DNA of 64,000 nucleotides. Source: Lacrimispora saccharolytica (GTDB lineage: Bacteria; Bacillota; Clostridia; Lachnospirales; Lachnospiraceae). The stretch is taken from positions 1-64,000 of the forward strand of contig JACJJN010000019.1 of the NCBI GenBank assembly GCA_016899975.1, given 5' to 3'. Shown in pieces: positions 22,945 through 55,277 of the stretch. The number at the start of each line of letters is the position of its first letter. Position 1 is the stretch's first letter. Under the pieces are notes generated by a model. It did no database searches, was not told where the DNA came from, and saw only the letters and a list, made by a program, of their open reading frames with translations. A program made the translations under genes and the position numbers.

Positions 22945-24219
22945 TTATTTTTCCTTGTGGCTGGTCAGAATATCAGGATATTGTGTTCTGACATTCCGGT
23001 AGAGAATTTCTTCCCCGCTGCTGTCAGGAATACTCATTTCCGCAAAGATCCTGTCGGTGGCTCTGTCGATTTCTTCGCGGGTACCCGCATGGAGAAAGCA
23101 TCTTGCCACATAGGGGCGGGCGAACTCCTGGACCTGTTCTCCCTGGCGGTAAAAAATCCAGCTTTGGCTGATTTCCGGGGAGCGGAAACATTTTTCGGCT
23201 GATTCCAGACTGGCGATTTCCCTCTCGCGTCCGTGGAAATAGAGAACGGCGCTGCTCTTGTCGAAAAATGGATTGTGCTCCTGCAGCATAAGCGGGATGC
23301 GTTCCGGCGCGTAGACAGAATTGAGGAGCAGCTCTTCGATGGAGAGACCGCTGCAGAATTCAATCAGCTCATGCTCATAGCCCAGAAAACGCGCGGCGAT
23401 TTCGCAGACCTCAATGCCCCTGTCCGGATGCCAGAAAAACTGCATGGAAAGTTCTCCGTCCTGCTGTCCGGTAAAACGGATCACCTTTTCCAGGATACGT
23501 TTTGCATCCTGGTATACATGATCCATCAGGCAGGAAGGATACACGTTGCGGCTGCAGACCGGAATGGAGTGCGTTTCACCTGGGCTTTTCTCCCGGTCGG
23601 CGATTCCCAGGACGAAAACCTGTCCGTTGTTTACCCATGCCATCAGATTAAATTCATATCCCGTGTTGTACTCTTCAAGCAGTATTTTCTCTGTTTCCGA
23701 GCCGGCACAGATTTCGTGGAATCTACTGCGGATCTCCTCCAGGCTGTTCAGTACGAGGACGCCGCGGGAACCGTATCGGTCCAGAGGCTTGGTTACCACC
23801 GGGAAACGGAGATCGCCAAGAAGGTCCGGGGAGCAGTCTGCTCCGGTCTCCACGTACCGCGGCGTCGGAATATCCAGGGAAGCAAACATTTTTTTCATCA
23901 CAGATTTGTCCCGGTAGAATTTCAGCTGCTCCGGAATCAGATAGCAGGGCAGACCGGCCTTTGCCGCGATTTTGACCATACATTCCAAGAGCAGATCGGA
24001 AAATGCAGTGAGGATGCCGTCCACCCGTTCCTTCCTGCAGATTTCCGCAATTTTTTCCGTGGATCTGACATCCACATCGTAGACGATATCCGCCTCTTTT
24101 TTTGCCGGACCGTCCGGATTGCCGTCGCAGACAATCGTACAGATTCCTCTTGCTTTGGAGAGTTTTACCAGTTGTATAAATTCCTCGGAGCTGCCGAGGA
24201 TGAAAATGCGATGATTCAT
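22945..24219 (-). CDS. ATP-grasp domain ligase
   Basis: A 424-residue ATP-grasp protein. An N-terminal Rossmann-like pre-grasp domain (FILGSSEEFIQLVKLSK) is followed by the ATP-grasp lobes with KPLDRYGSRGV (ATP-binding lysine and glycine-rich loop), LLEEYNTGYEFNLMAW, and the metal-binding ELSMQFFWHPDRGIEVCEIAARFLG. The family forms amide or ester bonds using acyl phosphates; the substrate here is not known. It is the last gene of a three-gene operon, and its ATG overlaps the TGA of the PLP-fold gene. The neighbours (a membrane-anchored glycosyltransferase and a DegT-like enzyme) suggest that it adds an amino acid or similar group to a lipid-linked sugar; this is inference. Confidence 0.8.
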   Translation of the reverse strand: MNHRIFILGSSEEFIQLVKLSKARGICTIVCDGNPDGPAKKEADIVYDVDVRSTEKIAEICRKERVDGILTAFSDLLLECMVKIAAKAGLPCYLIPEQLKFYRDKSVMKKMFASLDIPTPRYVETGADCSPDLLGDLRFPVVTKPLDRYGSRGVLVLNSLEEIRSRFHEICAGSETEKILLEEYNTGYEFNLMAWVNNGQVFVLGIADREKSPGETHSIPVCSRNVYPSCLMDHVYQDAKRILEKVIRFTGQQDGELSMQFFWHPDRGIEVCEIAARFLGYEHELIEFCSGLSIEELLLNSVYAPERIPLMLQEHNPFFDKSSAVLYFHGREREIASLESAEKCFRSPEISQSWIFYRQGEQVQEFARPYVARCFLHAGTREEIDRATDRIFAEMSIPDSSGEEILYRNVRTQYPDILTSHKEK

Positions 24220-25184
24220 AAGTTCCTCCCACATAACCGCAGAACCGCGGCTGCAACCCTTTCCATGTCGGACGTTGTATAACGCTGATCGCAGGGAAGA
24301 GGCAGGATATTGGCGGCGTAACGGTATTCTGTACTGTCTTTTGGCATTTCGTTCACAACGTTCTTCCAGTTAACAGGTACATAAATTTTTTTCTCTGCCA
24401 GTTTTTTCCGGATTTCGAGCCCGTTCGGCGTGTAATACGGATAACACAGCGGAACAGACGGTTCCCGGAACGGAAGCGGGTTGGAAGTGTCAAGAAAGGA
24501 AGACAGCGTCCGGTAATTTTCTTTTCGTCTCTGAGCGCTTCCGGAGTAGTCGATTCCGCGCAGAAGGTTTTGTGTCAGGCGGGACATCCGGCGGATTTCC
24601 CGGGAATGAAAAGTCTCCGCATTTTTCAGCATGACGGAGTAATAAGCGTTTCCGCCCTTTTCATAACGCCCGAGAACATGTTCCATCCTTTCGGTGGAAA
24701 AATCCATCGGCAGATCGTCTTCCGTGAGCAGATCCGCAGCCAGGTATGCGCCGTCGGGAAGGCCGAAAAATTTTCTTGGCGAATAAATCGTGTCCACATG
24801 CTCCACTGGCCGCTGATAAAAGGCATGGGTCTGATCTACGATGATCCGTTGATATTTCTTCTGGAAGAAGCGGATTTGTTCATCGGTCAGCTGTCCATAG
24901 TAATTGACCAGATACAGCCATGCGCCCTCCGGCAGTTCGTCGATTTCCGGCATCAACTCCTCATTGACAGAGTAGAAGGAAACTTTTGCGCTGCTGTTAC
25001 GGCATGCGTCAATCACTGAGTCGCACAGGTAATAGGGCAAAAAGATTTCCTGGCAGCCGCGCCGGTCCAGCAGGTACTGAAGCGCAGTTCTGCCAAGATT
25101 CAGATGGAGCAGATCAGGATAATATTCTTCACCGGGCAGTTCTTCCATTTCAAAGTAACCGCCGATTTCTTTCTGGTTTATCAT
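24216..25184 (-). CDS. DegT/DnrJ/EryC1-like PLP-fold protein
   Basis: A 322-residue protein with the fold-type I aminotransferase layout of sugar aminotransferases: LNLGRTALQYLL near the N-terminus, the FLPYYLCDSVIDAC and LVNYYGQ strands, VDQTHAFY where the PLP-nitrogen aspartate is expected, and a candidate Schiff-base lysine in YSPRKFFGLPDGAYL. The overall similarity to DegT enzymes is weak. It could be a divergent 3-keto-sugar aminotransferase or a non-catalytic relative. Two ATGs, 25193 and 25184, overlap the end of the glycosyltransferase gene; 25184 has the better-spaced AAGGA. Confidence 0.65.
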   Translation of the reverse strand: MINQKEIGGYFEMEELPGEEYYPDLLHLNLGRTALQYLLDRRGCQEIFLPYYLCDSVIDACRNSSAKVSFYSVNEELMPEIDELPEGAWLYLVNYYGQLTDEQIRFFQKKYQRIIVDQTHAFYQRPVEHVDTIYSPRKFFGLPDGAYLAADLLTEDDLPMDFSTERMEHVLGRYEKGGNAYYSVMLKNAETFHSREIRRMSRLTQNLLRGIDYSGSAQRRKENYRTLSSFLDTSNPLPFREPSVPLCYPYYTPNGLEIRKKLAEKKIYVPVNWKNVVNEMPKDSTEYRYAANILPLPCDQRYTTSDMERVAAAVLRLCGRNL

Positions 25185-25185
25185 G

Positions 25186-26124
25186 TTAAACATCCTTATC
25201 TCTGATGGTATAGTTTGGCATTTTCCTCGTCTCTTCCAGAATATTGATCAGGTACTGTCCGACAATGCCCACGGAAAGCAGCAGCAAACCGGAGTAGGCG
25301 CTGATCAGAAGGACGATCGTCGTCCACCCTTCCACAGGGCTTCCGAAACACAGGAATTTTATCAGATAAAACAGCCCAAGGACAATGCTGACAAGAAAGC
25401 TGACGATTCCTATGTCGCGTACGACGATCAGCGGGAAAGCCGAATTGGAAATAATATCGTAATACAGGTCATGAGCCAGGCGGCGGTAGCTGTAGCCGCT
25501 TTTTCCGTATTTTCTGGCATCATGGCGCACCTCCACATTGATGATCCGGTTGGAGGTCTGCACCAGAAGATTGCCGATCTGGGGCAGATGAACGTCCATT
25601 CCAAGGATGGCGTCAACAATGAAACGGCGCATCAGGCGGAAGCTGGTGATTTCCAGGTTTGGATCCTTTTTCAGCATTTTGGAAGTCGCATAAACGGATA
25701 TTTTCGTTCCAAGCTTCCGGATCAGATTGTGATGGCGGTTCTGGTATTTGGCGATGATGACATCGACCTCAGGATTTTCCTGGATTGCCTTCACAAGCTT
25801 TGGAATCTCCTCAGGGGGATGCTGAAGGTCGTCGTCCATGGTTATGATGAAATCCCCTTTTGCAAAAGAAAAACCGCAGAGCAAAGCGGGATGCTGTCCG
25901 AAATTTTTCGCCATCTGTACAATCCGTACCCTGGGATCTGCATTGCGGAGTTCTTTCATGATTTTATAGGAGTTATCTCTGGAACTGTCATCCACCAGAA
26001 TCAGTTCAAACTCTTCGTGAATCGTAGTTTCAAATACTGTCCGGATGCGCTGGTACAGTTCCGCGAGCGTGTGTTCAGAGTTGAAAACAGGTACTACAAC
26101 GGAATATAGACTCATAGCACTCAT
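25186..26124 (-). CDS. Membrane-anchored GT2 glycosyltransferase (ArnC/GtrB/DPM type)
   Basis: A 312-residue family 2 glycosyltransferase. The N-terminal GT-A domain shows VVVPVFNSE, VDDSSRDNS and the metal-binding DDDLQHPPEE. Two C-terminal transmembrane helices (about 232-255 and 268-290) are typical of enzymes that move a sugar to a polyprenyl phosphate, such as ArnC or GtrB. It heads a tightly overlapped operon with a PLP-fold enzyme and an ATP-grasp ligase. The likely role is making a lipid-linked modified sugar for the cell envelope; the sugar is unknown. The ATG at 26124 has AAAGGA close upstream. Confidence 0.85.
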   Translation of the reverse strand: MSAMSLYSVVVPVFNSEHTLAELYQRIRTVFETTIHEEFELILVDDSSRDNSYKIMKELRNADPRVRIVQMAKNFGQHPALLCGFSFAKGDFIITMDDDLQHPPEEIPKLVKAIQENPEVDVIIAKYQNRHHNLIRKLGTKISVYATSKMLKKDPNLEITSFRLMRRFIVDAILGMDVHLPQIGNLLVQTSNRIINVEVRHDARKYGKSGYSYRRLAHDLYYDIISNSAFPLIVVRDIGIVSFLVSIVLGLFYLIKFLCFGSPVEGWTTIVLLISAYSGLLLLSVGIVGQYLINILEETRKMPNYTIRDKDV

Positions 26125-26172: not shown

Positions 26173-27048
26173 TCAGCGGTTATCAAGCTTGCGGTATTCC
26201 TTTGGCGTCACGCCGAATTTCTTTTTAAAGACCCGGTTAAAATATGAAATATTGTTAAAGCCTGACTCAAGAGCGATGGTGGTGATCGGAAGTTCCGTCT
26301 TCGCAAGCTGGCGGGATGCCATTTCCAGGCGGTACTGGTTCAGATACTCGATGCAGGTCATATTCATATGGCGTTTAAAGAAACGCATAAAATGGTATTC
26401 ACTGAAGTGGCAGAGGTCTGCCAGTTCCCGTACGGTCACGGAACTCTGATAATGCTCCTGGATAAACTGCAGGACCATCTTTAGTTTGTCGGTAATATCG
26501 GTGTGGGTCTGGTCGGTTTTCTGGTAGGGTACGTGGCTGTACAGCAGGAAGAACAGGTGAAGAAGCTGCGCTTTGATCTCCAGTTCGTAGCCGAACGGTT
26601 TTTCCAGGAATGCCTTCCGGACCGTCTCAAAGGATTCCAGCAGAAGCGGTACCACTGGGTCCGAGGCGGGAAGATGCACGGGGAACCGGATTGTTCCGCT
26701 GGCAAGAGGAACGAAAAAACGGGTCGTGCAGAAGTCCGGAATCGAACTTTCCAGCAGATCCAGGCGAAAGACGAAGCTGTCCGTGATAAATTCCGCCTGA
26801 GACTGTTCCACGGTGCCATGGAGCATTTCCGGAGGAAGGAGCAGAAAATCTCCCTCAGTAATATGGTAAGACTGCAGATCGATCTGATAGGTGCAGGAGC
26901 CCTTCCGTACATAAGTGATCTCAAATTCTTCATGCCAGTGTACCGGCAGGCTGCCGGTGCCGAGAGGAAATACACAGGGATAATACTCCAGAGGGAACAT
27001 GGCGGAGCCATGCTGCACCGGTTCCAAAAGATCAGGGTTCTGGTTCAT
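26173..27048 (-). CDS. AraC family transcriptional regulator
   Basis: A 291-residue regulator. The N-terminal cupin domain has the sugar-pocket pattern VHWHEEFEITYV and GDFLLLPPEMLHG. The C-terminal 100 residues hold two helix-turn-helix motifs (TVRELADLCHFSEYHFMRFF and PITTIALESGFNNISYFNRVFK) with the AraC signature ending GVTPKEYRK. The ATG at 27048 follows AGGAGAGTTATT; the long upstream in-frame extension overlaps the GH31 gene on the other strand and was rejected. It is divergent from the GH31 gene at 27185 and probably activates it in response to a glucoside. Confidence 0.92.
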   Translation of the reverse strand: MNQNPDLLEPVQHGSAMFPLEYYPCVFPLGTGSLPVHWHEEFEITYVRKGSCTYQIDLQSYHITEGDFLLLPPEMLHGTVEQSQAEFITDSFVFRLDLLESSIPDFCTTRFFVPLASGTIRFPVHLPASDPVVPLLLESFETVRKAFLEKPFGYELEIKAQLLHLFFLLYSHVPYQKTDQTHTDITDKLKMVLQFIQEHYQSSVTVRELADLCHFSEYHFMRFFKRHMNMTCIEYLNQYRLEMASRQLAKTELPITTIALESGFNNISYFNRVFKKKFGVTPKEYRKLDNR

Positions 27049-27061
27049 AATAACTCTCCTT

Positions 27062-27128
27062 CGGCAGCAGGATTGTGTTATAAAAAGCTGGAAATATGCA
27101 AGAAAATCCTGTCTGCTGCCGCTATAAT
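27062..27128 (+). promoter_or_regulatory. Divergent control region between araC-type gene and GH31 gene
   Basis: An inverted repeat CGGCAGC-AGGATT (27062-27074) and AATCCT-GTCT-GCTGCCG (27105-27121) spans the region. A TATAAT -10 box (27123-27128) points toward the GH31 gene, but the -35 position holds only A-rich sequence. A good -10 with a poor -35 and an upstream symmetric site fits an activator-dependent promoter. Confidence 0.5.
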
Positions 27129-27184
27129 AATACCATAGGACATCATGCAGTGTCAAAAAATGAGAGCGGAAAGGAGAAGAAAGC

Positions 27185-29251
27185 ATGATTCGTAAGTATC
27201 GTTTCGGAAACCCGTTGAATACAGAGGCCGTAGTGGAAGAGCATCCCATTGAGCAGGGGAAACTCCCACGGGTGGAAGTGAAAGAAGGAGAAAAAATTTC
27301 CTTCATGATGACAAAGGACGCGCCCGTGTATGGCCTGGGTGAACAGGTACGCGGTATCAATAAGAGGGGATGGATTTATATCAGCAACTGTACCGACGAC
27401 CCCAACCACCGGGAAGACACCCGTTCCCTGTATGCGGCCCACAATTTTCTTCTGTTTGCGGAGAAAGAACCGTTTGGAATTTTCCTGGATCATCCGGGCA
27501 AGGTGACCTTTGATATCGGTTACACCCAGCAGGATACTGCAGTGATCACCATGGAAAGCTGGGATATGGACGTATATTTTATCGATGGAAAAGATCTCAA
27601 AGACATCGTACATCAGTTCCGGCATATGATCGGCCGCAGCTATATTCCTCCAAAGTGGGCGTTTGGATTCGGACAGAGCCGCTGGGGTTACAAAAGCGAG
27701 GATGACGTGCGTGAGGTGGAACGCAGATACCGTGAACTGGGAATTCCTCTGGACAGCATTTATCTGGATATCGACTATATGGAACGGTTCAAGGACTTTA
27801 CGGTGAACGAAGAAACCTTCCCGGATTTCCCGGAATTTGTAAAGGAAATGCAGGAGAAGCATATCCATCTGGTGCCGATCATTGACGCAGGCGTCAAGAT
27901 CGAAGAAGGCTACCAGGTTTACGAAGAAGGCATGGAGAAAGGATATTTCTGTAAGGATGAGGATGGAAAGGAGTTCGTCGCAGCCGTATGGCCGGGACGA
28001 GTGCATTTCCCGGATATGCTGAATCCGGAGGCGCGCCGCTGGTTCGGACTGAAGTACAAATTCCTGCTGGATCAGGGAATCGATGGATTCTGGAATGATA
28101 TGAACGAGCCGTCCATCTTCTATTCCGAAAAGCGTCTGGAGAAAGTTTTTGATGAGTTGGAAAGCTTCCGCGGAAAGAACCAGGATCTGATGACACATTT
28201 CCGATTTAAGGGTCTGGTCATGGAGTTGGCGAACAATCCCGAGGATTACCGAAGCTTTTATCATAACTTTAACGGGGAAGGCACTCCGGTTCGTCATGAC
28301 AAGGTACATAATCTGTACGGCTACAATATGACCCGCGCGGCAGGAGATGCATTTGAGGAACTGGAGCCGGACAAGAGGATCCTGATGTTCTCTCGTTCTT
28401 CCTATATCGGAATGCATCGTTACGGCGGAATCTGGCAGGGAGACAATCTGTCCTGGTGGTCCCATCTGCTGCTGAACATCAAAATGATGCCTTCCTTGAA
28501 TATGTGCGGCTTCCTGTATACCGGAGCGGATCTGTGCGGTTTCGGCGCAGACACAACAGAAGACCTGGCACTGCGCTGGATGCAGTTCGGTGTGTTCACG
28601 CCGCTGATGAGAAATCATGCTGCCCTTGGAACACGTGAGCAGGAGCTGTATCAGTTCTCCAACAGCGAGGCATGCGGAAGAATGGTGAAGATTCGTTACA
28701 GCCTGCTGCCGTATCTGTACAGCGAGTATATGAAGGCGGCGCTGAGGGATGAGATGATGTTCCGCCCGCTGGCTTTCGATTATCCGGACGATCCGTATGC
28801 GGATCAGGTTGAGGATCAGCTGATGATCGGCGACAGTATGATGATCGCTCCGGTATATGAACAGAACAAGACAGGCCGTTATGTCTATCTGCCGGAGGAT
28901 ATGATGCTTGTATCCATGAGAAGTCCGGAGGATTACACGGTTCAGGTGGTGGAACAGGGACATCATTATGTGCCGGTGGCAATGGACGAACTGATCTTCT
29001 TTATTAAGAAAGATCATGTGATCCCGATGGCAGAAAGTGCAAAGAGTGTGTCGGATATGGACTTCGAACATCTGAACCTGCTGGGTTATGTGACCGACAA
29101 GGCGGTTTACGAGCTGTATGACGATGACGGAAACAGCAAGGATTATGAGAATCCGGAGCATTATGAGAAGATCACAGTCAGCGCGAAGGGAACCATCCGC
29201 CAGAGCGGAAAGATGAAAAAGGTATTTGAGAAATTCAACGGCATTCATTGA
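27185..29251 (+). CDS. GH31 alpha-glucosidase (Ro-alphaG1-like)
   Basis: A 688-residue cytoplasmic alpha-glucosidase. From memory it closely follows the characterised Blautia obeum GH31 alpha-glucosidase Ro-alphaG1 along its whole length (start MIRKYR, INKRGW.YISNCTDDP, IGRSYIPPKWAFGFGQSRWGY). The nucleophile is D305 in GFWNDMNEP. MFSRSSYIGMHRYGG, WWSHLLLNIKMMPSLNMCGF and the YTGADLCGFG acid/base region follow. Ro-alphaG1 prefers alpha-1,6 over alpha-1,4 linkages, and a similar preference is inferred here. The gene is divergent from an AraC regulator and ends before a terminator, so it is a single-gene unit. Confidence 0.93.
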   Translation: MIRKYRFGNPLNTEAVVEEHPIEQGKLPRVEVKEGEKISFMMTKDAPVYGLGEQVRGINKRGWIYISNCTDDPNHREDTRSLYAAHNFLLFAEKEPFGIFLDHPGKVTFDIGYTQQDTAVITMESWDMDVYFIDGKDLKDIVHQFRHMIGRSYIPPKWAFGFGQSRWGYKSEDDVREVERRYRELGIPLDSIYLDIDYMERFKDFTVNEETFPDFPEFVKEMQEKHIHLVPIIDAGVKIEEGYQVYEEGMEKGYFCKDEDGKEFVAAVWPGRVHFPDMLNPEARRWFGLKYKFLLDQGIDGFWNDMNEPSIFYSEKRLEKVFDELESFRGKNQDLMTHFRFKGLVMELANNPEDYRSFYHNFNGEGTPVRHDKVHNLYGYNMTRAAGDAFEELEPDKRILMFSRSSYIGMHRYGGIWQGDNLSWWSHLLLNIKMMPSLNMCGFLYTGADLCGFGADTTEDLALRWMQFGVFTPLMRNHAALGTREQELYQFSNSEACGRMVKIRYSLLPYLYSEYMKAALRDEMMFRPLAFDYPDDPYADQVEDQLMIGDSMMIAPVYEQNKTGRYVYLPEDMMLVSMRSPEDYTVQVVEQGHHYVPVAMDELIFFIKKDHVIPMAESAKSVSDMDFEHLNLLGYVTDKAVYELYDDDGNSKDYENPEHYEKITVSAKGTIRQSGKMKKVFEKFNGIH

Positions 29252-37022: not shown

Positions 37023-38357
37023 ATGGATCATTCTGAAGACTTTGAAAACGGAAAACTTTTCCCGATGATTGTACGCTACTCCGTACCGGCGGCAATCTCC
37101 CTGCTGATCACGGCGATTTACAATATCGTTGATCGTATCTTTGTGGGAAATTACTGCGGTACCAGCGCTTTGGCGGGGCTCTCGGTCTGCTTTCCGCTGT
37201 CTTTCCTCATGATGGCGGTGGGTCTGAACTGTTCGGCGGGAGGCGCGACCCTGTTCAGCCTTTTCCGCGGACGCGGGGAAAAGAAGGATATGAGCCGGAG
37301 TTTTGGAAATTCCTATCTGATGGTCGTGGTGCTGGAGCTTTTGCTTTCTGCGATTCTTCTGCTGTTTGCTGAGCCGATCCTGATGCTGTTTGGCGCGACC
37401 GATACCTGTTACACCTATGCATTGGCTTATTACCGGATCGTTGCGGTAGGCTGTGTGTTTCAGGGAATTTCCCAGGTGTGCTGCGACTTCGTCCGAGTGT
37501 CCGGAAAACCGGTGCTGGGAATGTGTGTGACCAGTATAGGCGCTGTGACGAACATTATCCTGGATTTTCTGTTTGTGGCTGTGCTGGACATGGGTGTGGA
37601 AGGCGCTGCGCTGGCGACGGTTGCAGGTCAGTTCCTTTCTGCGGTGTTTGGCTCGGTCCTGATCTTTTCCGGAAGAACCCTTGTGGTGATCGAAAGGCAG
37701 ATTTTCCGGATCAGGAAAGAACTTGCCGGAAAAATCCTGTCCTGCGGTTTTGCCTTCTTTATCTCCCAGATCGCAATGGGACTGATCAGTCTGGTGTATA
37801 ACGGGCAGCTTGGAAAATACGGCGGCGATACGGCGATCAGTGTCTACGCGGTTGTCTCCAGTGTCATGACCTTTGTCATTATGCCAGCCAGCGGGATCAG
37901 CCAGGGAATCCAGCCGATCCTGGGGAATAATTACGGAGCGGGAAAGTATCACAGAGTTATGAAAACCATGTGGAAGGCTTCGGCGCTTTCGGTGGGGATC
38001 ACCTGTGTGATCTGGGCAGGCGTGATGCTGTTTTCCAGAGAACTGATCCTTGTCTTCGGAGGCGGAGAGGATATGCTGGCTATCGGCGTTTCAGGCCTGC
38101 GCATCAATTTTATCATCACTCCGGCGCTGGGATTTATCATGCTGGCGACCACCTTCTTTCAGTCCCTGGGAAAACCATTGCCTTCCATCATCATTACGGC
38201 TCTGCGCCAGATTGTTTTTCTGATTCCGTTTATTTACCTTCTGCCCCTCGTTCTGGGAATCAACGGAATCTTCTGGGCGCAGCCGATCAGTGATGCGCTC
38301 GCGCTTCTGCTTTCCCTGTGGCTTACCCTGCGGGAACAGAAAAATATGTACCGGTGA
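37023..38357 (+). CDS. MATE family multidrug efflux protein
   Basis: A 444-residue membrane protein with 12 predicted helices in two halves. Features include PAAISLLITAIYNIVDRIFVG near the N-terminus, GTSALAGLSVCFPLSF, and the second-half equivalent GQLGKYGGDTAISVYAVVSSVMTF with PASGISQGIQPILGNNYGAGK. These are typical of MatE proteins of the DinF/MepA branch, which export cationic drugs using Na+ or H+. A MarR gene upstream with a shared operator supports a drug-inducible efflux role. Start ATG 37023 follows AAAGGAGAAGAGAAT. Confidence 0.9.
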   Translation: MDHSEDFENGKLFPMIVRYSVPAAISLLITAIYNIVDRIFVGNYCGTSALAGLSVCFPLSFLMMAVGLNCSAGGATLFSLFRGRGEKKDMSRSFGNSYLMVVVLELLLSAILLLFAEPILMLFGATDTCYTYALAYYRIVAVGCVFQGISQVCCDFVRVSGKPVLGMCVTSIGAVTNIILDFLFVAVLDMGVEGAALATVAGQFLSAVFGSVLIFSGRTLVVIERQIFRIRKELAGKILSCGFAFFISQIAMGLISLVYNGQLGKYGGDTAISVYAVVSSVMTFVIMPASGISQGIQPILGNNYGAGKYHRVMKTMWKASALSVGITCVIWAGVMLFSRELILVFGGGEDMLAIGVSGLRINFIITPALGFIMLATTFFQSLGKPLPSIIITALRQIVFLIPFIYLLPLVLGINGIFWAQPISDALALLLSLWLTLREQKNMYR

Positions 38358-38427
38358 CGTTTTTTCATTATGCCGCATAATTATAAAAGTAGTTACTGAC
38401 AATCTCGGATGTAACAGGGAGGAAATT

Positions 38428-39492
38428 ATGAAAAAGAAAGCGGTATATCTGATTATTCCGGCAGTTCTCTGTGTTCTGCTTGCGGGCTGCGGTGATAAGA
38501 CCAAGGAGGAAGAACCTGCGGCGGTATCCGCCGTCAGCCAGACGGAAGAACAGTCTGCCCAGGAGGAAGAGCTGATTTCGGTGACACTCAACGAGGTGGC
38601 ACATTCCATTTTCTATGCTCCTCAGTATGTGGCGATTGAGGAAGGGTACTTTAAGGAGGAAGGCATCGATCTGACACTGGTCAATGGCTTTGGCGCCGAC
38701 AAAGTCATGACCGCTGTGATCTCAGGGGAAGCGGACATTGGATTTATGGGAGCGGAAGCCTCTGTCTATGCGTATCTGGAAGGAACCTCCAATCCTGTGG
38801 TGAATTTCGCCCAGCTGACACAGCGCGCCGGTAACTTTGTCGTTGCACGGGAGCCAGACGAAGATTTTCAGTGGGAAGACCTGAAAGGGAAAACGGTTCT
38901 GGGAGGAAGAAAGGGCGGAATGCCGGAGATGGTCTTTGAATACGTTCTGAAAGACAAAGGCATCGATCCGACGGCGGATCTTGAAATCAACCAGAGCATC
39001 GACTTCGGTTCCACTGCCGCTGCATTTTCTGGCGGCCAGGGCGATTACACGATCGAATTTGAACCGTCGGCGACTGCCCTGGAAGAAGAGGGCGCGGGCT
39101 ATGTGGTGGCATCTGTCGGAACCGAATCCGGTTATGTCCCGTACACTTCCTACAGCGCAAAGGAAAGCTATATAGAGGAAAATCCCGAGGTGATCCAGAA
39201 ATTTACCAATGCGCTTCAGAGAGGAATGGAGTATGTGCAGACACATACGCCGGAGGAGATTGCGAAAGTGATCGCTCCTCAGTTCGAGGAGACAAAGCTG
39301 GAGACGATCACGACCATTGTAAACAGATATTATGAGCAGGATACCTGGAAGAGCAATCTGATCTTTGAACAGGACAGTTTCGATCTGCTTCAGAATATTC
39401 TGGAGAGTGCAGGGGAACTGAAAGAACGTGCGCCGTATGACGAACTGGTAACGACGGAATTTGCAGAGAAAGCGGCAAAAGCACAGGATTAA
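38428..39492 (+). CDS. ABC transporter substrate-binding lipoprotein (NMT1/THI5-like)
   Basis: A 354-residue lipoprotein with a signal peptide ending in the lipobox LLAGC (Cys21), followed by a Glu/Ala-rich linker to about residue 50. The mature domain starts VTLNEVAHSIFYAPQYVAIEEGYFKEEG, the signature of the SsuA/THI5-like binding proteins for nitrate, sulfonate or pyrimidine-like ligands. GGRKGGMPE is a typical ligand-loop motif. No permease or ATPase gene accompanies it, so it is an orphan component here. Start ATG 38428 follows AGGGAGGAAATT. Confidence 0.85.
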   Translation: MKKKAVYLIIPAVLCVLLAGCGDKTKEEEPAAVSAVSQTEEQSAQEEELISVTLNEVAHSIFYAPQYVAIEEGYFKEEGIDLTLVNGFGADKVMTAVISGEADIGFMGAEASVYAYLEGTSNPVVNFAQLTQRAGNFVVAREPDEDFQWEDLKGKTVLGGRKGGMPEMVFEYVLKDKGIDPTADLEINQSIDFGSTAAAFSGGQGDYTIEFEPSATALEEEGAGYVVASVGTESGYVPYTSYSAKESYIEENPEVIQKFTNALQRGMEYVQTHTPEEIAKVIAPQFEETKLETITTIVNRYYEQDTWKSNLIFEQDSFDLLQNILESAGELKERAPYDELVTTEFAEKAAKAQD

Positions 39493-47436: not shown

Positions 47437-49764
47437 ATGAGTGAATTGATCAGAATTCTGCCGGCGATCGCCCTTCGCGGGACCACGATTCTGCCAGATA
47501 TGATCGTACACTTTGATATCAGCAGGAGTCGTTCGATAAAAGCTGTGGAAGAGGCGATGCTGCATGACCAGAAAGTATTTCTTGTGACTCAGAAAGACCC
47601 GGATACGGAAGTACCGGGTCTGCTTGACGTGTATAAGATAGGAACTGTTGCCACGGTCAAACAGGTGGTGAAGCTTCCGAAAGGCGTGCTCCGCATCCTT
47701 GTGGAAGGAGAAAAGCGTGCGGAACTGCTGGGTTTTGAACCGAACGACGAGTGGCTGGAGGCTGAGATCGAAGGATTTGATCATCTGGAGGAAAAGCCGC
47801 TGACAGAGAACGAGCAGGAGGCTATGAGCCGGAATCTGAAGGAACTCTTTACGATCTACTGCCGTTCCGGACAGAAGATCAGCCAGGAACTTGCCGTACA
47901 GATCATGGAGAATGAGAGCCTGGAGCGTCTGGTGGACCAGATTGCCATCAATCTTCCCATTGATTATGAACAGCGGCAGAAGCTGCTGGAGGCAGTGGCG
48001 CTCACCGAGCGGTACGAACTGCTCTGCACGATCCTTGCCAATGAAGTGGAGATCATGGAGATTCGCCTGGAACTGCAGAGCAGGATCAAAGAGCGGATCG
48101 ACAAGAACCAGAAGGAATATATTTTAAGAGAACAGCTCAGACTGATCAGGGAAGAGCTTGGAGAGGACAACGTTCAGTCGGAGATCGAGGGCTACAGGAA
48201 AGCGGCTGCTGCACTGAAGGCATCCAAAGAAGTGAAGGAAAAGATCAATGAGGAAATCCGCCGCTTTGAAAATGTGGGAGGAAATCCATCGGAAGGAGCG
48301 GTAATCCGCGGATATATCGAGACGCTGCTTGGCCTTCCGTGGGACAAGACTTCAAGAGACAATCAGAATCTTGCGAAAGCGCGGGAGATCCTGGAGGCGG
48401 ATCATTACGGTCTGACGAAAGTAAAAGAAAGGATCCTGGAATATCTGGCTGTACGTACGCTGACGAAAAAAGGCGACAGCCCGATCCTTTGCCTGGTCGG
48501 CCCTCCGGGAACCGGAAAAACATCCATCGCCCGCTCTGTGGCGAAAGCCTTGAACAAAAAATACGTCCGCATTTCTCTGGGAGGCGTGCGGGATGAAGCG
48601 GAGATCCGCGGTCATAGAAGAACCTATGTGGGAGCGATGCCGGGACGGATCGTTCAGAGTCTGCACCAGGCGGGAGTAAAAAATCCTCTGATGCTTCTGG
48701 ATGAGATCGATAAGGTCAGCTCCGATTACAAAGGGGACACCGCGTCTGCGCTTCTGGAGGTTCTGGATTCCGAGCAAAACAACAAATTTACCGACCACTA
48801 CGTGGAGATTCCGGTGGATCTGTCGGAAGTGCTGTTTATCGCAACCGCCAACGATGTACAGACGATCCCGCGGCCTTTGCTGGACCGTATGGAACTGATC
48901 GAGATCACCAGCTATACGGAGAATGAAAAACAGCATATCGGCCGTGAACATCTGATCCCGAAACAGATGAAAAACAACGGAATCAAGGAATCACAGCTGA
49001 CGATCACCGACGAAGCTCTGGAAGAGATCATCAGCGGATACACCAAAGAAGCCGGCGTCCGTTCCCTGGAGCGCCAGATCGGACGCATCTGCCGCAGGAC
49101 GGCACGGAAGCTTCTGGAAGAGAAACAGGACCATGTGGAAGTGACAAAGGATAATCTGGAAGAATTTCTGGACCGCCGCCGCTTCGATTATGTGAAGAAA
49201 AACGATAAGCCGGAGGTTGGAATTGTCCGCGGCCTGGCATGGACTTCTGTGGGAGGAGATACCCTCCAGATTGAAGTCAATGTGATGCCGGGAACAGGAG
49301 ATTTTATGCTGACCGGTCAGCTCGGAGATGTGATGAAAGAATCTGCCCAGGCGGGAATCAGTTATATCCGCTCCATTGCCGGGGAATATCAGATTGAAGA
49401 GAACTTTTTTGAGAAACACGATATACATATCCATATACCGGAGGGCGCCGTTCCGAAGGACGGTCCGTCTGCGGGAATCACGATGGCGACCGCGATGATC
49501 TCAGCAATCCTCAATGTGCCGGTGCGGGCAGATCTGGCAATGACCGGGGAGATTACTCTGCGCGGCAGGGTACTGCCCATCGGAGGTCTGAAAGAAAAAC
49601 TGCTGGCTGCGAAAAAGGCGGGGATCACGACGGTTCTGGTGCCGGAAAAAAACCGGCTGGATGTGGATGAAATGGATCATGAGATTACAGACGGACTTAC
49701 CATCTGTTTCGTGAACAACATGAAAGAGGTTCTTGACCGGGCGCTTCTGAAGGAAGAAGAGTGA
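47437..49764 (+). CDS. lon: ATP-dependent protease Lon
   Basis: Cytoplasmic serine protease and AAA+ ATPase that removes damaged and regulatory proteins. The 775-residue product has the N-terminal LAN substrate domain (ILPAIALRGTTILPDMIVHFD), a coiled linker, Walker A VGPPGTGKTSIARSVA, Walker B PLMLLDEIDK, and the protease domain with the catalytic serine S678 in PKDGPSAGIT plus the lysine in GGLKEKLLAAKKAG. ATG 47437 follows ATCAGGAGGAAAAAC. A family 1 hairpin lies immediately upstream. ysxC follows after 16 bases, as in Bacillus. Confidence 0.97.
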   Translation: MSELIRILPAIALRGTTILPDMIVHFDISRSRSIKAVEEAMLHDQKVFLVTQKDPDTEVPGLLDVYKIGTVATVKQVVKLPKGVLRILVEGEKRAELLGFEPNDEWLEAEIEGFDHLEEKPLTENEQEAMSRNLKELFTIYCRSGQKISQELAVQIMENESLERLVDQIAINLPIDYEQRQKLLEAVALTERYELLCTILANEVEIMEIRLELQSRIKERIDKNQKEYILREQLRLIREELGEDNVQSEIEGYRKAAAALKASKEVKEKINEEIRRFENVGGNPSEGAVIRGYIETLLGLPWDKTSRDNQNLAKAREILEADHYGLTKVKERILEYLAVRTLTKKGDSPILCLVGPPGTGKTSIARSVAKALNKKYVRISLGGVRDEAEIRGHRRTYVGAMPGRIVQSLHQAGVKNPLMLLDEIDKVSSDYKGDTASALLEVLDSEQNNKFTDHYVEIPVDLSEVLFIATANDVQTIPRPLLDRMELIEITSYTENEKQHIGREHLIPKQMKNNGIKESQLTITDEALEEIISGYTKEAGVRSLERQIGRICRRTARKLLEEKQDHVEVTKDNLEEFLDRRRFDYVKKNDKPEVGIVRGLAWTSVGGDTLQIEVNVMPGTGDFMLTGQLGDVMKESAQAGISYIRSIAGEYQIEENFFEKHDIHIHIPEGAVPKDGPSAGITMATAMISAILNVPVRADLAMTGEITLRGRVLPIGGLKEKLLAAKKAGITTVLVPEKNRLDVDEMDHEITDGLTICFVNNMKEVLDRALLKEEE

Positions 49765-49780
49765 ACAGGGGTAAAAAAAT

Positions 49781-50395
49781 ATGGTATTAAGAAAGGTAGA
49801 ACTGCAGTATGTCTGCGGAATCACCAGCAAACTGCCGGATACCGGCCAGCCGGAAGTGGCCTTTGCGGGAAAATCGAATGTGGGGAAATCCTCCCTGATC
49901 AATGCGCTGATGAACCGTAAGGCGCTGGCACGCACCAGCGCCCAGCCTGGCAAGACGCAGACGATCAATTACTATCATATCAACGACGATCTGTATCTGG
50001 TGGATCTTCCCGGGTACGGTTACGCGAAGGTTTCTGAGGAGATCAAGGCGAAATGGGGAAAGATGATTGAGAATTATCTCCATACCTCCCCAACCCTTCG
50101 GGCAGTCTTTCTGCTGATCGATATCCGCCATGCGCCGTCCGCCAACGATGTGGTCATGTATGACTGGGTAATCCGCAATGGATTTCAGCCGATCATCATT
50201 GCCACAAAGCTGGACAAGATCAAGCGGAGCCAGGTGGCGAAGCAGGTGAAGCTTCTGAAGACAACCCTGAACGTGGTACCCGGCACACCGGTGATCCCGT
50301 TTTCCGCACAGACGAAGCAGGGACGGGAAGAAATCTGGAAACTGATCGAACAATTTATCTCTATGCCGGCGGAAGAAACGCCGGAACAGGAGTAA
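49781..50395 (+). CDS. ysxC: Ribosome biogenesis GTP-binding protein YsxC/EngB
   Basis: Essential GTPase that helps assemble the 50S subunit. The 204-residue product shows G1 [16 protein letters not shown]2 around [14 protein letters not shown]3 [12 protein letters not shown]4 TKLDKI and G5 FSAQTKQG. It follows lon directly, a gene pair conserved in Firmicutes. The ECF transporter genes start four bases after its stop, so the stretch from lon to truA is probably read as one or two overlapping transcripts. Confidence 0.96.
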
Positions 50396-50399
50396 GGAT

Positions 50400-51245
50400 A
50401 TGGGAATTATAAGAGCTGCAAAGCTGGGCTTTGATTATTTCAGATATGAAGAGGAAGGCGCGGAGCCGGAGGCGACCAGGGCGATCGATGATGTGAACCT
50501 GGACATCCAGGCAGGGCAGTTTATCGCGGTGCTCGGACATAACGGCAGCGGAAAATCCACACTGGCAAAACATATCAACGGTCTGCTGGTGCCGACGGAA
50601 GGAACGCTGTGGGTGGATAACATGGATACTTCCGAGGAAGAAGACATCTGGAAGATCCGCCAGAAAGCCGGGATGGTCTTCCAGAATCCGGACAACCAGA
50701 TCATCGGAAGCGTCGTGGAGGAGGATGTCGGATTCGGTCCGGAGAACATCGGAATCCCGACAGAGGAAATCTGGAAGCGGGTGGACGAAAGCCTTCAGGC
50801 GACGGGAATGGTAGCCTACCGCCACCACTCGCCCAATAAACTGTCCGGCGGACAGAAGCAGAGGGTCGCGATCGCCGGAGTGATGGCGATGCGCCCGGAA
50901 TGTATCGTACTGGACGAACCGACGGCGATGCTGGATCCCAACGGCAGAAAAGAAGTTCTGAAAGCTGTCCGGGAACTGAACGAAAAAGAAGGAGTCACGG
51001 TCATTCTGATCACTCATTATATGGAAGAGGTGGTCTTTGCGGATCACGTCTTTGTGATGGATCAGGGACGCGTGGTGATGCAGGGAACTCCAAGAGAAGT
51101 ATTTTCCCGCGTGGAAGAATTAAAGGCGCTTCGGCTGGATGTGCCGCAGGTGACGCTTCTCGCCCATGAGCTGAAGCAGGCGGGCGTGGAGATTCCGGAC
51201 GGGATATTGACGATAGAGGAATTGGTGGACGCATTATGTCAGTAG
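50400..51245 (+). CDS. ecfA1: Energy-coupling factor transporter ATPase EcfA1
   Basis: One of two ABC ATPases of the general group II ECF module that powers several vitamin-specific S components. The 281-residue product has Walker [15 protein letters not shown]-loop VFQNPDNQI, signature KLSGGQKQR, Walker [14 protein letters not shown] and H-loop ITHYMEE. It overlaps ecfA2 by ten bases. The S components are usually encoded elsewhere, and none is seen here. Confidence 0.96.
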
Positions 51246-52093
51246 AATTAAAAGATGTGACTTATACCTACAGCCCGGGAACCGCTTATGAGATGCATGC
51301 CCTGGAACATGTGTCGATGGAAATCCAGGACGGTCAGTTTGTCGGAGTGATCGGTCATACCGGCAGCGGAAAGTCCACGCTGGTACAGCATTTCAACGGG
51401 CTGATCCGGCCGACCTCGGGACACGTTTATTACAACGGGGAGGATATCTGGCAGGAAGGCTACAACCTCCGGGAACTGCGCAGTCATGTGGGATTGGTGT
51501 TTCAGTATCCGGAACATCAGCTGTTTGAGACAGACGTTCTTACCGACGTCTGTTTCGGACCAAAGAATCAGGGACTTTCTCCGGAAGAATGTAAGGAGCG
51601 CGCGAAAGAGGCTCTGCAGCATGTAGGGCTGGATGAAAGCTATTATGAAAAATCTCCTTTTGAGCTGTCCGGAGGACAGAAACGCAGGGTGGCGATCGCG
51701 GGAGTCCTGGCGATGAATCCTTCCTTTCTGATTCTGGATGAGCCGACGGCTGGTCTGGACCCGAAGGGCAGAGATGAGATTCTGGATCAGCTGGCGCTGC
51801 TGCATGAAACCAGAGGGATCTCCATTATGCTGGTTTCCCACAGTATGGAAGATATCGCCAGATATGTGGAGCGGATCATCGTGATGAACAAAGGCCATGT
51901 GGCGTTCGACGATACGCCGAAAGAGGTATTCTCCCACTATAAAGAACTGGAAGAGATGGGACTTGCTGCGCCGCAGATGACCTACATTATGCATGCGCTG
52001 AAGGAAAGAGGAATGGATGTGGACGTCACGGCAACCACCGTGGAGGAAGCAAGAGATTCCATTCTGAAAGCGTTGAAAAAGAGAAAGGCATAA
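51236..52093 (+). CDS. ecfA2: Energy-coupling factor transporter ATPase EcfA2
   Basis: Second ATPase of the general ECF module. The 285-residue product has Walker [18 protein letters not shown]-loop [11 protein letters not shown] (the YPEHQLFE form is typical of EcfA2), signature LSGGQKRR, Walker [14 protein letters not shown] and H-loop VSHSMED. It pairs with EcfA1 to make the heterodimer that couples to EcfT. It starts inside ecfA1 and is followed by ecfT after six bases. Confidence 0.96.
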
Positions 52094-52099: not shown

Positions 52100-52900
52100 A
52101 TGTTACGAGATATCACAATAGGACAGTACTATCCGGCGGATTCCGTTCTTCACCGTATGGATCCGAGGGTAAAATTTATAGGGACGCTGGCGTATATCAT
52201 CTCTCTGTTTCTGTTTCATAGCTGGGGATATGTGCTGGGAACCGTGTTTCTGATCAGTATGATCGTACTCTCCAAAGTCCCCTTCAAATTTATGGTCAGA
52301 GGTCTGAAATCCATCGTGGTTCTTCTGATGATCACGCTGGTGTTCAATATTCTGTTTACGCCGGGTGAAGCGGTCGTGACGATCTGGAAGATCCATATCA
52401 CCAAGGAAGGACTGATCCTGGCGGCGCGTATGGGAATCCGTCTGATCTTTCTGATCATCGGAGCTTCTATCATGACGTTGACCACCACACCGAATCAGCT
52501 GACAGACGGACTGGAAAGCCTGCTGGGGCCGTTGAAGAAGATCCATGTGCCGGTACACGAAGTGGCAATGATGATGTCCATTGCGCTCCGGTTTATCCCC
52601 ATCCTTCTGGAGGAGACGGACAAGATCATGAAGGCGCAGATGGCGAGGGGAGCAGATTTTGAGAGTGGAAACCTGATCCAGAAAGTGAAAAATATGATAC
52701 CGCTGCTGGTGCCGCTGTTCATTTCCGCTTTCCGCCGTGCCAACGACCTGGCGCTGGCAATGGAAGCCCGCTGCTATCACGGCGGCGATGGACGGACACA
52801 GATGAAACCGCTCCGTTATCAGAAGAGAGATTATGCGGCATATGCCGTTCTGGCGGTGTATTTTGGAATCAGCATCCTGTGTGCGGTATTCGGCTTTTGA
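52100..52900 (+). CDS. ecfT: Energy-coupling factor transporter transmembrane protein EcfT
   Basis: Transmembrane coupling component that joins EcfA1A2 to exchangeable vitamin-binding S components. The 266-residue product has about five helices and the two cytoplasmic coupling-helix motifs with the conserved Ala-Arg-Gly: MARGADFESG and MEARCYHGGDGRT. It follows ecfA2 and precedes truA, an arrangement conserved across Firmicutes. Confidence 0.95.
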   Translation: MLRDITIGQYYPADSVLHRMDPRVKFIGTLAYIISLFLFHSWGYVLGTVFLISMIVLSKVPFKFMVRGLKSIVVLLMITLVFNILFTPGEAVVTIWKIHITKEGLILAARMGIRLIFLIIGASIMTLTTTPNQLTDGLESLLGPLKKIHVPVHEVAMMMSIALRFIPILLEETDKIMKAQMARGADFESGNLIQKVKNMIPLLVPLFISAFRRANDLALAMEARCYHGGDGRTQMKPLRYQKRDYAAYAVLAVYFGISILCAVFGF

Positions 52901-52940
52901 TGCACGAAAAGCCATGGAAACAGTCGGAAAAGGAAAAAGA

Positions 52941-53690
52941 ATGAGACGTATAAAACTGATCGTTGCATACGATGGAACCAATTACTGCGGCTGGCAGGTA
53001 CAGCCCAACGGGCTTTCCGTGCAGGAAGTGCTGAACCGTGCCCTGAGCGACCTGTTCGGCGTACCGGTCACTACAATCGGAGCGAGCCGTACAGACGCGG
53101 GCGTGCATGCCCTGGGAAATGTGGCGGTTTTTGACACGGAAGCGCGGATGCCGGCGGAGCGGGTAGCTTTCGCTCTGAACACCCGTCTTCCGGAAGATAT
53201 CCGGATCCAGGGGTCTGAAGAAGTGCCGCCGGAGTTTCATCCCAGATTTACCCAGACCATAAAGACTTATGAATACCGGATCCTGAACCGGACATTTGCA
53301 GACCCGTGCCGCCGGCTCAATTCTACTTTCTGGTATGGAAAGCTGGATACGGATGCGATGCAGAAAGCAGCGGCATATTTGGAAGGAACTCATGATTTCA
53401 AAAGTCTTGCCACCGCGAATCCTGCGGTCACGGATACCGTCCGCACCATCTATAAAACCCGCTTGTGGAAAGAAGAGGATATGATCCACTTCCAGATTAC
53501 CGGAAACGGGTTTCTTTACAACATGGTTCGGATCATCGTCGGAACTCTGATGGAGATCGGCAAAGGAACCTGGCCTCCGGAACAGATGCAGACGATCCTG
53601 GAGGCAAAAGACCGGTCCCAGGCAGGTCCTACCGCACGCCCGGAGGGACTGACACTCCTTAAAATCGAATACCCTGAGTGGGAAAGATGA
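52941..53690 (+). CDS. truA: tRNA pseudouridine(38-40) synthase TruA
   Basis: Converts uridines 38-40 of the anticodon stem to pseudouridine. The 249-residue product shows the N-terminal VAYDGTNYCGWQVQPNG, the catalytic aspartate D52 in GASRTDAGVHALG, and the C-terminal HFQITGNGFLYNMVRIIVGTL. ATG 52941 follows AGGAAAAAGA. It ends the ECF transcript; a family 1 repeat and a strong promoter separate it from rplM. Confidence 0.96.
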   Translation: MRRIKLIVAYDGTNYCGWQVQPNGLSVQEVLNRALSDLFGVPVTTIGASRTDAGVHALGNVAVFDTEARMPAERVAFALNTRLPEDIRIQGSEEVPPEFHPRFTQTIKTYEYRILNRTFADPCRRLNSTFWYGKLDTDAMQKAAAYLEGTHDFKSLATANPAVTDTVRTIYKTRLWKEEDMIHFQITGNGFLYNMVRIIVGTLMEIGKGTWPPEQMQTILEAKDRSQAGPTARPEGLTLLKIEYPEWER

Positions 53691-53695
53691 AATTT

Positions 53696-53823
53696 GTAAC
53701 CGTTCAGCTAGCTGAACGGTTACGGCATCCGCCCATGAAAAATCGCTTCGCGATGGCGCGGATGCCCACAGGCACTACGTTTTCATACGGTCTGCGCAGT
53801 AAATGCGCAGACCTGGTTGAATA
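53696..53823. repeat. Composite palindromic repeat, family 1, copy B
   Basis: Three hairpins. GTAACCGTTCAGCT / AGCTGAACGGTTAC (53696-53723) is a perfect 28-base palindrome. GGCATCCGC / GCGGATGCC (53724-53732 with 53758-53766) carries an inner ATCGC-TTC-GCGAT hairpin. GGTCTGCGCA / TGCGCAGACC lies at 53789-53813. A degenerate terminal arm, CTGGTTGAATAC, follows. The order and inner loops match copy A at 4239-4372. Confidence 0.85.
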
Positions 53824-53857
53824 CTTACTGAAATTTGACAAAATGCGGAAAAAACAG

Positions 53858-53886
53858 TTGACATTGATAATTCTGTATAATATAAT
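53858..53886 (+). promoter_or_regulatory. Consensus promoter of the rplM-rpsI operon
   Basis: TTGACA (53858-53863), exactly 17 bases, TATAAT (53881-53886). A fully consensus sigma-A promoter, as expected for ribosomal protein genes. Confidence 0.9.
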
Positions 53887-53911
53887 ATCTCAATGTGACA
53901 TAGTATGAAAA

Positions 53912-53946
53912 CGCCGAGACCATTAGCCCCGGTGAGGCGGTTTTTC
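53912..53946 (+). ncRNA. L13 leader (ribosomal protein autoregulation element)
   Basis: Just after the promoter, CGCC-GAG-ACC (from 53912) can pair with GGT-GA-GGCG (to 53939), followed by TTTTTCT. The position between promoter and rplM, the small size and the terminator-like end fit the L13 leader of Firmicutes, through which L13 limits its own synthesis. Assigned by position and structure only. Confidence 0.6.
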
Positions 53947-53991
53947 TAATATATGCAACAAATAAGTGAAAATTAACAGGAGGTTATATCC

Positions 53992-54420
53992 ATGAACACC
54001 TTTATGGCAAATCCAGATAAGATTGAAAGAAAATGGTATGTAGTAGATGCAGATGGATGTACATTGGGACGTCTGGCATCTGAAGTAGCAAGCGTACTGC
54101 GCGGAAAAAACAAACCGCAGTATACTCCGAACGTAGACACCGGAGATTATGTAATCGTAATCAACGCTGACAAGATCAACGTAACAGGCAAGAAGCTGGA
54201 TCAGAAGATCTACTACAGACATTCCGAATATGTTGGTGGTATGAAAGAGACAACTCTTCGTGAGATGATGGCGAAAAAGCCGGAGAAGGTAGTTGAACTT
54301 GCAGTAAAAGGCATGCTTCCAAAAGGACCTCTGGGAAGACAGATGTACACCAAACTTCATGTATACGCTGGTGCAGAGCATCCGCACGCAGCTCAGAAGC
54401 CTGAAGTATTAACATTTTAA
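53992..54420 (+). CDS. rplM: 50S ribosomal protein L13
   Basis: Early-assembly protein of the large ribosomal subunit. The 142-residue product has the family length and signatures: [19 protein letters not shown] at the N-terminus, [18 protein letters not shown], and the [22 protein letters not shown] segment. ATG 53992 follows AACAGGAGGTTATATCC. It is co-transcribed with rpsI 17 bases downstream. Confidence 0.98.
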
Positions 54421-54437
54421 TAGGGAGGTAAAAAACA

Positions 54438-54830
54438 TTGGCTAGCGCAAAATTCTACGGAACCGGAAGAAGAAAAAAATCTATCGCAAGAGTATACCTT
54501 GTACCGGGTACAGGTAATATCACAATCAATAAAAGAGATATCGACGAGTATCTGGGTCTGGAGACCTTAAAGGTAATCGTTCGTCAGCCTCTGGTAGCTA
54601 CAGAGACAAGTGATAAATTTGACGTAATCGTAAACGTACACGGCGGCGGTTACACAGGACAGGCTGGTGCAATCCGTCACGGAATCGCACGTGCACTGCT
54701 TCAGGCAGACGCTGACTACAGACCAGTTCTGAAGAAAGCAGGATACCTGACTCGTGATCCGAGAATGAAAGAGAGAAAGAAATACGGCCTCAAGGCCGCT
54801 CGTCGTGCTCCGCAGTTCAGCAAGCGATAA
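54438..54830 (+). CDS. rpsI: 30S ribosomal protein S9
   Basis: Small-subunit protein whose C-terminal tail touches P-site tRNA. The 130-residue product shows [18 protein letters not shown] at the N-terminus, [23 protein letters not shown], and the terminal [17 protein letters not shown]. Translation starts at TTG 54438 after TAGGGAGGTAAAAAACA. The gene is intact. The mobile element begins shortly after its terminator; the 3' end of rpsI is a known insertion target of integrative elements in streptococci. Confidence 0.98.
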
Positions 54831-54850
54831 TTTTAGTTCAAAACAGCTCA

Positions 54851-54885
54851 AAAACCCCGAAACCATGCGGTTTTCGGGGTTTTTC
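54851..54885 (+). terminator. Terminator of the rplM-rpsI operon
   Basis: AAAAACCCCGAAA (54851 onward) pairs with TTTTCGGGGTTTTT, a strong stem with flanking A and T runs. Confidence 0.88.
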
Positions 54886-54906
54886 CTTTTCAGATTGTTT
54901 GCCCTG

Positions 54907-55105
54907 TTTTGGCATAGTCTGACCCGTTTTGAACCATTTTTTATGGGTTAAATTAAGGACAACCACCCCCAAAACAGGGGCTAATGGGTTAAATCATAGG
55001 ACAACTTTTTTGCCCCAGCCCTCTCCCAAGAGGTCATTTTTGCTTTTTTGTCCCTCTGAAATTTTATGCAAAATCGGTTTGGCAGAGTTTGACCCAATCT
55101 GAACA
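54907..55105 (+). repeat. Two pairs of imperfect direct repeats at the element's left end
   Basis: Pair one: ATGGGTTAAATTAAGGACAAC (54943-54963) and ATGGGTTAAATCATAGGACAAC (54984-55005). Pair two: TTGGCATAGTCTGACCC (about 54909 on) and TTGGCAGAGTTTGACCC (about 55079 on), each continuing to TGAAC. A CCCCC-AAAACA-GGGG hairpin separates the members of pair one. They may be protein-binding sites for an integrase, ParB or replication protein. The gap holds no gene. Confidence 0.55.
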
Positions 55106-55119
55106 AATGAATATGATTT

Positions 55120-55236
55120 TATTGCGAAAGCGTTCAGCGTTCCAGCTGGGCGCTTTTTGCATTTCCGGGGACCGACGTTCCGGGATCAGAAAAAGCCGTC
55201 ACTCTTTTTTTCAAGAAAGTAGTGGCGGCTTTTTCT
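55120..55236 (+). terminator. Two terminator-like hairpins before parA
   Basis: GCGAAAGCG with CGCTTTTTGC (about 55119-55160), then AAAAAGCCGTCACT with AGTGGCGGCTTTTT (about 55190-55234). The second is strong. They insulate parA from upstream transcription or regulate it. Confidence 0.65.
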
Positions 55237-55277
55237 ATTTCCAGAACCAAACACGACAAACAGAAACGAGGTGAAAT

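What the first reader, a model, noticed from the sequence alone, without database searches (positions are those of the whole stretch)
22945..26124. Unassigned operon: lipid-type glycosyltransferase, PLP-fold enzyme and ATP-grasp ligase
Three overlapping genes combine a GtrB/ArnC-like transferase, a divergent sugar aminotransferase-like protein and an ATP-grasp ligase. Together they could build a polyprenyl-linked amino sugar and then amidate or acylate it, for example with an amino acid. I know of no named pathway with this exact set. It is the best candidate here for an undescribed envelope modification system.
Basis: inference. Interest (0 to 1): 0.6.

Follow-up and report, generated by a model that had tools for sequence, protein, structure and literature searches.

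The report
Aminoacyl-amino-sugar lipid carrier pathway operon
Three overlapping genes of a gut Lachnospiraceae bacterium look like part of a pathway that builds an amino sugar, joins an amino-acid-like group to it, loads it on a membrane lipid and exports it to decorate the cell surface; one of the three enzymes belongs to a large family that Pfam and NCBIfam do not yet cover.

Summary
The three genes are real, at the stated coordinates, and overlap as an operon. The set GT-PLP-ATP-grasp is conserved in many Lachnospiraceae and related Firmicutes. The PLP protein hits no Pfam or NCBIfam model, yet its model (pLDDT 93.9) has the ArnB/DegT sugar-aminotransferase fold (Z 22.9), with Lys141 and Asp120 invariant. 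The ligase model is closest to L-amino acid ligases. The operon is only half of the system: in other genomes it lies next to WecE (dTDP-Fuc4N transaminase), an SMR/ArnEF-like pair, RmlA/RmlB and Wzm/Wzt. This genome has WecE, RmlB, the SMR pair and a GtrII-type GT-C on another contig; all 8 sampled genomes with the operon have WecE, against 135/397 overall. Best reading: an Arn/Gtr-like three-component pathway for an N-aminoacylated Fuc4N-type sugar. WecE, not the PLP protein, probably makes the first amine; the PLP protein most likely adds a second amine for the ligase (or a GNAT elsewhere) to cap. No substrate is shown. New variant of a known kind, with an uncovered enzyme family.

The parts
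25186..26124 (-). GtrB/ArnC/PgfS-like GT2, predicted polyprenyl-phosphate glycosyltransferase; most orthologues start at Met4 (MSLYS)
   Evidence: PF00535 1.9e-36; ArnC and PgfS models are best but below cut-off; orthologues 65-94% identical in the same operon
24216..25193 (-). divergent PLP-dependent enzyme of the ArnB/DegT fold
   Evidence: no Pfam/NCBIfam hit; model pLDDT 93.9; ArnB 8snj_B Z 22.9, 2.8 A over 266 residues; profile match to a WecE alignment E 1.5e-6
24771..24773 (-). codon of Lys141, predicted PLP Schiff-base lysine; the only invariant lysine of the family
   Evidence: 55/55 and 31/31 sequences
24834..24836 (-). codon of Asp120, predicted partner of the PLP ring nitrogen
   Evidence: invariant; aligns with the EDAAQ aspartate of WecE
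22945..24234 (-). ATP-grasp carboxylate-amine ligase, L-amino acid ligase type
   Evidence: PF13535 above cut-off; model pLDDT 92.8; L-amino acid ligase 3vot TM 0.76/0.82

Best explanation
The operon is the activation and acylation half of an Arn/Gtr-like extracytoplasmic glycosylation pathway. Proposed route: RmlA and RmlB make dTDP-4-keto-6-deoxyglucose; WecE (contig C11) turns it into dTDP-Fuc4N; the window's ATP-grasp ligase joins a carboxylate, probably an amino acid, to an amine; the DegT-fold PLP enzyme transaminates a second keto group so that a further amine is available for acylation; the window's GT2 moves the finished sugar to undecaprenyl phosphate; the SMR pair (C11) flips it; a GT-C enzyme (GtrII or YfhO, C11) transfers it to a surface polymer, possibly the one exported by the Wzm/Wzt transporter of the same locus. 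Shown here: gene content, order, conservation, folds and partner genes. Inferred: every substrate, the order of steps and the final acceptor. Least certain: the PLP substrate (about 0.4 for a second amination). I favour it because the slot downstream of the PLP gene holds either an ATP-grasp or a GNAT, almost never both, as if either can cap the amine that the PLP enzyme makes.
For: GT-PLP-ATP-grasp in 17 of 19 loci with the GT orthologue; the other two end after the PLP gene at a contig end. In 16 of 19, WecE, the SMR pair or RmlA/RmlB lies in the held flanks; L120 has WecE-SMR-SMR-GT-PLP-ATP-grasp in a row. In 397 Lachnospiraceae genomes, all 8 with the close PLP have the GT orthologue (10/397 at E<=1e-60), all 8 have WecE (135/397) and 7 of 8 have the close SMR protein (15/397) (hypergeometric p 3e-15, 1.6e-4, 2e-10, no correction for shared ancestry). 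In this genome C11 runs SMR2-SMR1-MdoB-like-GtrII-RmlB on one strand, with WecE, two YfhO and Wzm/Wzt nearby. WecE scores 642.9 bits (cut-off 375), RmlB 485 (365). WecE + SMR + GT2 + ATP-grasp loci without a PLP gene tie the ligase to the WecE sugar. Upstream slot: ATP-grasp 38, WbqC 11, both 1; downstream slot: ATP-grasp 34, GNAT 13, both 1. Precedent: in C. difficile an ATP-grasp gene in a flagellin locus with an FdtB homologue is needed for a terminal cap of Fuc3N with taurine, alanine and glycine (PMC5207246, PMC5207245).
Against: In the window's genome and its two relatives with the operon, the partners lie on other contigs, so the link here rests on other genera. SMR and WecE also occur without the operon. 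The co-occurrence statistics ignore phylogeny. The GT substrate cannot be read from sequence. Some PLP loci (7 of 65) lack both ATP-grasp and WbqC by tblastn. The hhalign alignment is gapped around Lys141 and does not pair it with the WecE lysine.
Confidence: 0.6

Rival explanations
1. The PLP protein is itself the ArnB-like transaminase that makes the amino sugar which the GT loads; WecE serves another sugar.
For: ArnB is its top fold match and most DegT-fold enzymes act on nucleotide sugars (general knowledge); part of the PLP loci show no DegT gene within 10 kb (16 of 65).
Against: WecE in 8/8 operon genomes and adjacent in 10 of 19 named loci; WecE + SMR + GT2 + ATP-grasp loci with no PLP gene.
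Confidence: 0.25
2. The PLP enzyme makes the free amino-acid-like acid that the ligase then attaches to Fuc4N.
For: PLP and ATP-grasp genes are adjacent in most loci (43 of 65 within 400 bp); the ligase model resembles L-amino acid ligases.
Against: GNAT replaces the downstream ATP-grasp in 13 loci, which fits better with the PLP product carrying the amine to be capped; the fold group is mostly sugar transaminases.
Confidence: 0.25
3. The operon is unrelated to the C11 genes and makes a separate small molecule or glycolipid.
For: In the window genome, G001 and G003 it stands alone, far from C11-type genes.
Against: WecE, SMR pair or RmlA/B near the operon in 16 of 19 named loci.
Confidence: 0.12

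Closest known systems
Arn pathway (ArnB, ArnC, ArnE/ArnF) for undecaprenyl-phosphate aminoarabinose
   Same: ArnC-like GT2, ArnB-fold PLP enzyme, SMR-type pair as flippase
   Different: found in Bacillota; WecE supplies an amine, an ATP-grasp ligase is added, and a dTDP-linked 6-deoxy sugar is expected
GtrA/GtrB/GtrX and CsbB/GtcA/YfhO three-component glycosylation (PMC7389260)
   Same: GtrB-type GT2, small flippase, GT-C enzymes (GtrII, YfhO) in the genome
   Different: the lipid-linked sugar is expected to be an amino sugar modified before export; genes are split over two loci here
C. difficile type B flagellin peptidylamido-glycan (PMC5207245, PMC5207246)
   Same: an ATP-grasp gene near a sugar-aminotransferase gene, required for an amino-acid cap on an amino sugar
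   Different: cap sits on Fuc3N on flagellin, with FemAB-like and cyclodeaminase-like genes; relation of the two ATP-grasp proteins not tested
Enterobacterial common antigen Fuc4NAc branch (WecE, then an N-acetyltransferase)
   Same: WecE; one Lachnospiraceae locus (L195) has a GNAT in the ATP-grasp position
   Different: amino-acid-type ligase instead of acetyltransferase; Und-P rather than Und-PP route expected

Membership tests
DegT/DnrJ/EryC1/StrS aminotransferases (PF01041) | match to the Pfam model | tested here: not met
   0 families at E<=1 for the window protein and no PF01041 among 31 homologues
DegT/DnrJ/EryC1/StrS aminotransferases (PF01041) | fold | tested here: met
   ArnB Z 22.9, 2.8 A, 266 residues; WecE 4piw Z 21.7
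DegT/DnrJ/EryC1/StrS aminotransferases (PF01041) | Schiff-base lysine and PLP aspartate in matching positions | tested here: inconclusive
   Lys141 and Asp120 invariant; Asp120 aligns with WecE, Lys141 falls in a gapped stretch
ArnC equivalog (NF007986) | score above the curated cut-off | tested here: not met
   170 bits against 529
ATP-grasp_4 (PF13535) | score above gathering cut-off | tested here: met
   32.5 against 27 bits
PylC (TIGR03909) | score above the curated cut-off | tested here: not met
   54.6 against 248.3 bits
L-amino acid ligases | fold | tested here: met
   3vot TM 0.76/0.82
L-amino acid ligases | amino acid ligase activity | not testable with these tools
   needs an enzyme assay
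Three-component (Gtr-type) glycosylation | GtrB-type GT2, small flippase and GT-C in one genome | tested here: met
   window GT; SMR pair (EamA PF00892 38.6 against 28.2 bits for SMR1) and GtrII (PF14264 73 against 30 bits) on C11
Three-component (Gtr-type) glycosylation | the three parts act together | not testable with these tools
   needs deletions and lipid analysis
Arn pathway | ArnA formyltransferase/dehydrogenase and ArnT | not tested
   not searched in the genome

The most novel reading that the evidence does not exclude
The PLP protein belongs to a large family (at least 560 loci in one genome collection, several phyla) with no Pfam or NCBIfam model, whose members transaminate an already acylated sugar so that GNAT or ATP-grasp enzymes can extend an amide chain on it, giving peptide-like caps on surface sugars.
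Probability: 0.25. Interest if true: 0.75.

Novelty: new variant of a known kind. Interest (0 to 1): 0.55.

Why it matters
It predicts, from gene content alone, an amino-acid-bearing surface sugar in common gut bacteria, names the missing flippase and sugar genes, and points to an uncovered enzyme family in surface-polysaccharide clusters of many bacteria. Such caps can change surface charge and recognition by phages, antimicrobial peptides and the host (general expectation, not tested).

Tried and rejected
Single-sequence search of genome contigs found no relative; the family profile found 560. A sequence search of PDB with the single PLP protein gave only chance hits; the profile gave weak QdtB and 7n63 hits. 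PylC membership rejected on score. The AraC-type ORF at 26173-27360 just upstream was not counted as part: an ORF of 298 aa sits in the same place in the close relative L078, but other genera show other genes there. E. coli genomes hold no DNA match to the Proteus locus, so no known E. coli O-antigen structure could be used. Literature searches found no paper describing this gene set; the library holds open-licence papers only. Promoter and terminator scans of the region were near the shuffled background and were not used.

Full report
Observation. The three ORFs are on the minus strand at the stated coordinates, overlapping by 8 and 19 bp. The GT is a GT2 whose nearest NCBIfam models, ArnC and PgfS, it matches below cut-off. 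The last gene is an ATP-grasp protein. The middle gene matches no model in Pfam or NCBIfam, nor does any of 31 homologues match a PLP family in Pfam.

Where it comes from. The window genome has 3.25 Mb in 201 contigs. The best named locus, L078, is a Fusicatenibacter MAG at 77% identity, so I place it in Lachnospiraceae.

Conservation. In 397 genomes of the family, 63 encode the PLP family at E<=0.001. Close versions sit in a GT-PLP-ATP-grasp operon. More distant ones sit in polysaccharide clusters with a Wzx-type flippase, DegT aminotransferase, ATP-grasp, GNAT or WbqC genes. Records of the plasmid collection add Proteus and Cupriavidus.

Folds. The PLP model (pLDDT 93.9) aligns with ArnB at Z 22.9 over 266 residues, with DesV, DesI, PseC and WecE close behind. 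A profile comparison with a WecE alignment spans residues 32-320 (E 1.5e-6). Lys141 is the only invariant lysine, and Asp120 is invariant. The loop around Lys141 looks shorter than in WecE and the profile alignment is gapped there, so the match of the two lysines is likely but not shown. The ligase model is nearest to 4dim and to the L-amino acid ligase 3vot.

Partners. Clustering of neighbours turned up two small proteins of about 110-135 aa in ten or eleven loci. They match EamA and look like the ArnE/ArnF type of SMR pair. Next to the operon in other genera lie WecE, the SMR pair, RmlA/RmlB, and in some Wzm/Wzt. In the window genome these are on contig C11: WecE 37415-38551, RmlB 52214-53302, GtrII-type GT-C 53372-54919, MdoB-like 54950-56827, SMR1 56854-57192, SMR2 57188-57544, YfhO twice between 61913 and 67689, Wzt and Wzm at 48822-51545. 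An RmlA-like protein (63% identical to the one in L107) is on C123. The related genomes G001 and G003 also have WecE and the SMR protein, on contigs other than the operon's.

Statistics. Of 8 genomes with the close PLP in the family sample, 8 have the GT orthologue, 8 have WecE and 7 the close SMR protein; backgrounds are 10, 135 and 15 of 397. In five of them (G417, G132, G423, G230, G162) WecE, SMR and the operon lie within about 9 kb. The p-values assume independent genomes.

A PLP-free version. Around WecE and SMR genes in further genera I found GT2 plus ATP-grasp without a PLP gene in the fetched stretch, and one locus (L195) with a GNAT instead. This ties the ligase to the WecE sugar and makes the PLP enzyme an addition. 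It is the main reason to doubt that the PLP enzyme makes the first amine.

Slot pattern. Over 98 PLP loci the one or two genes upstream hold an ATP-grasp (38), WbqC (11) or the window-type GT (16), with the pairs ATP-grasp+WbqC and ATP-grasp+GT once each. Downstream are ATP-grasp (34) or GNAT (13), both once. I read this as alternative acylating enzymes on either side of the PLP step; that reading is inference. WbqC itself is described as functionally uncharacterised (PMC5532660).

Precedent. In C. difficile the ATP-grasp gene CDR20291_0245 lies near a gene for an FdtB-like aminotransferase and its mutant loses the terminal cap (PMC5207246); the cap contains taurine, alanine and glycine on Fuc3N (PMC5207245). 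Three-component systems with SMR-type flippases are discussed in PMC7389260 and PMC11127046.

Verdict. A real, conserved operon, best read as part of an Arn/Gtr-like pathway for an N-aminoacylated Fuc4N-type lipid-linked sugar. The chemistry is untested; the PLP substrate is the open question.

Noticed in passing
L181, L183, L186-L189, L192, L196, L199-L202: WecE and/or SMR genes beside a GT2 and an ATP-grasp with no PLP gene in the fetched stretch: a broader Lachnospiraceae module.
   Followed up: partly
L195:4309-7785: GNAT gene where other loci have the ATP-grasp, between GT2 and the SMR pair.
   Followed up: no
L070-L073, L075: PLP-family domain in long ORFs of 640-990 aa, possible fusions.
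   Followed up: no
L203:9124-24310: Proteus mirabilis H63 locus between a two-component regulator pair (probably cpxR/cpxA) and a tRNA-methyltransferase-like gene, probably an O-antigen cluster: DegT, GT, WbqC, PLP, SDR epimerase in a row.
   Followed up: partly
L172:2858-6276: WecE-like (46%), ATP-grasp and a GT 55% identical to the window GT, no PLP match in this genome.
   Followed up: partly
window:18032-22846: Glycerol kinase-like ORF followed by two FAD oxidoreductase-like ORFs and a small ORF, all + strand; named from the sequence, no family search run.
   Followed up: no
window:26173-27360: AraC-type regulator ORF on the same strand, ending 49 bp before the GT start; named from the sequence.
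   Followed up: no
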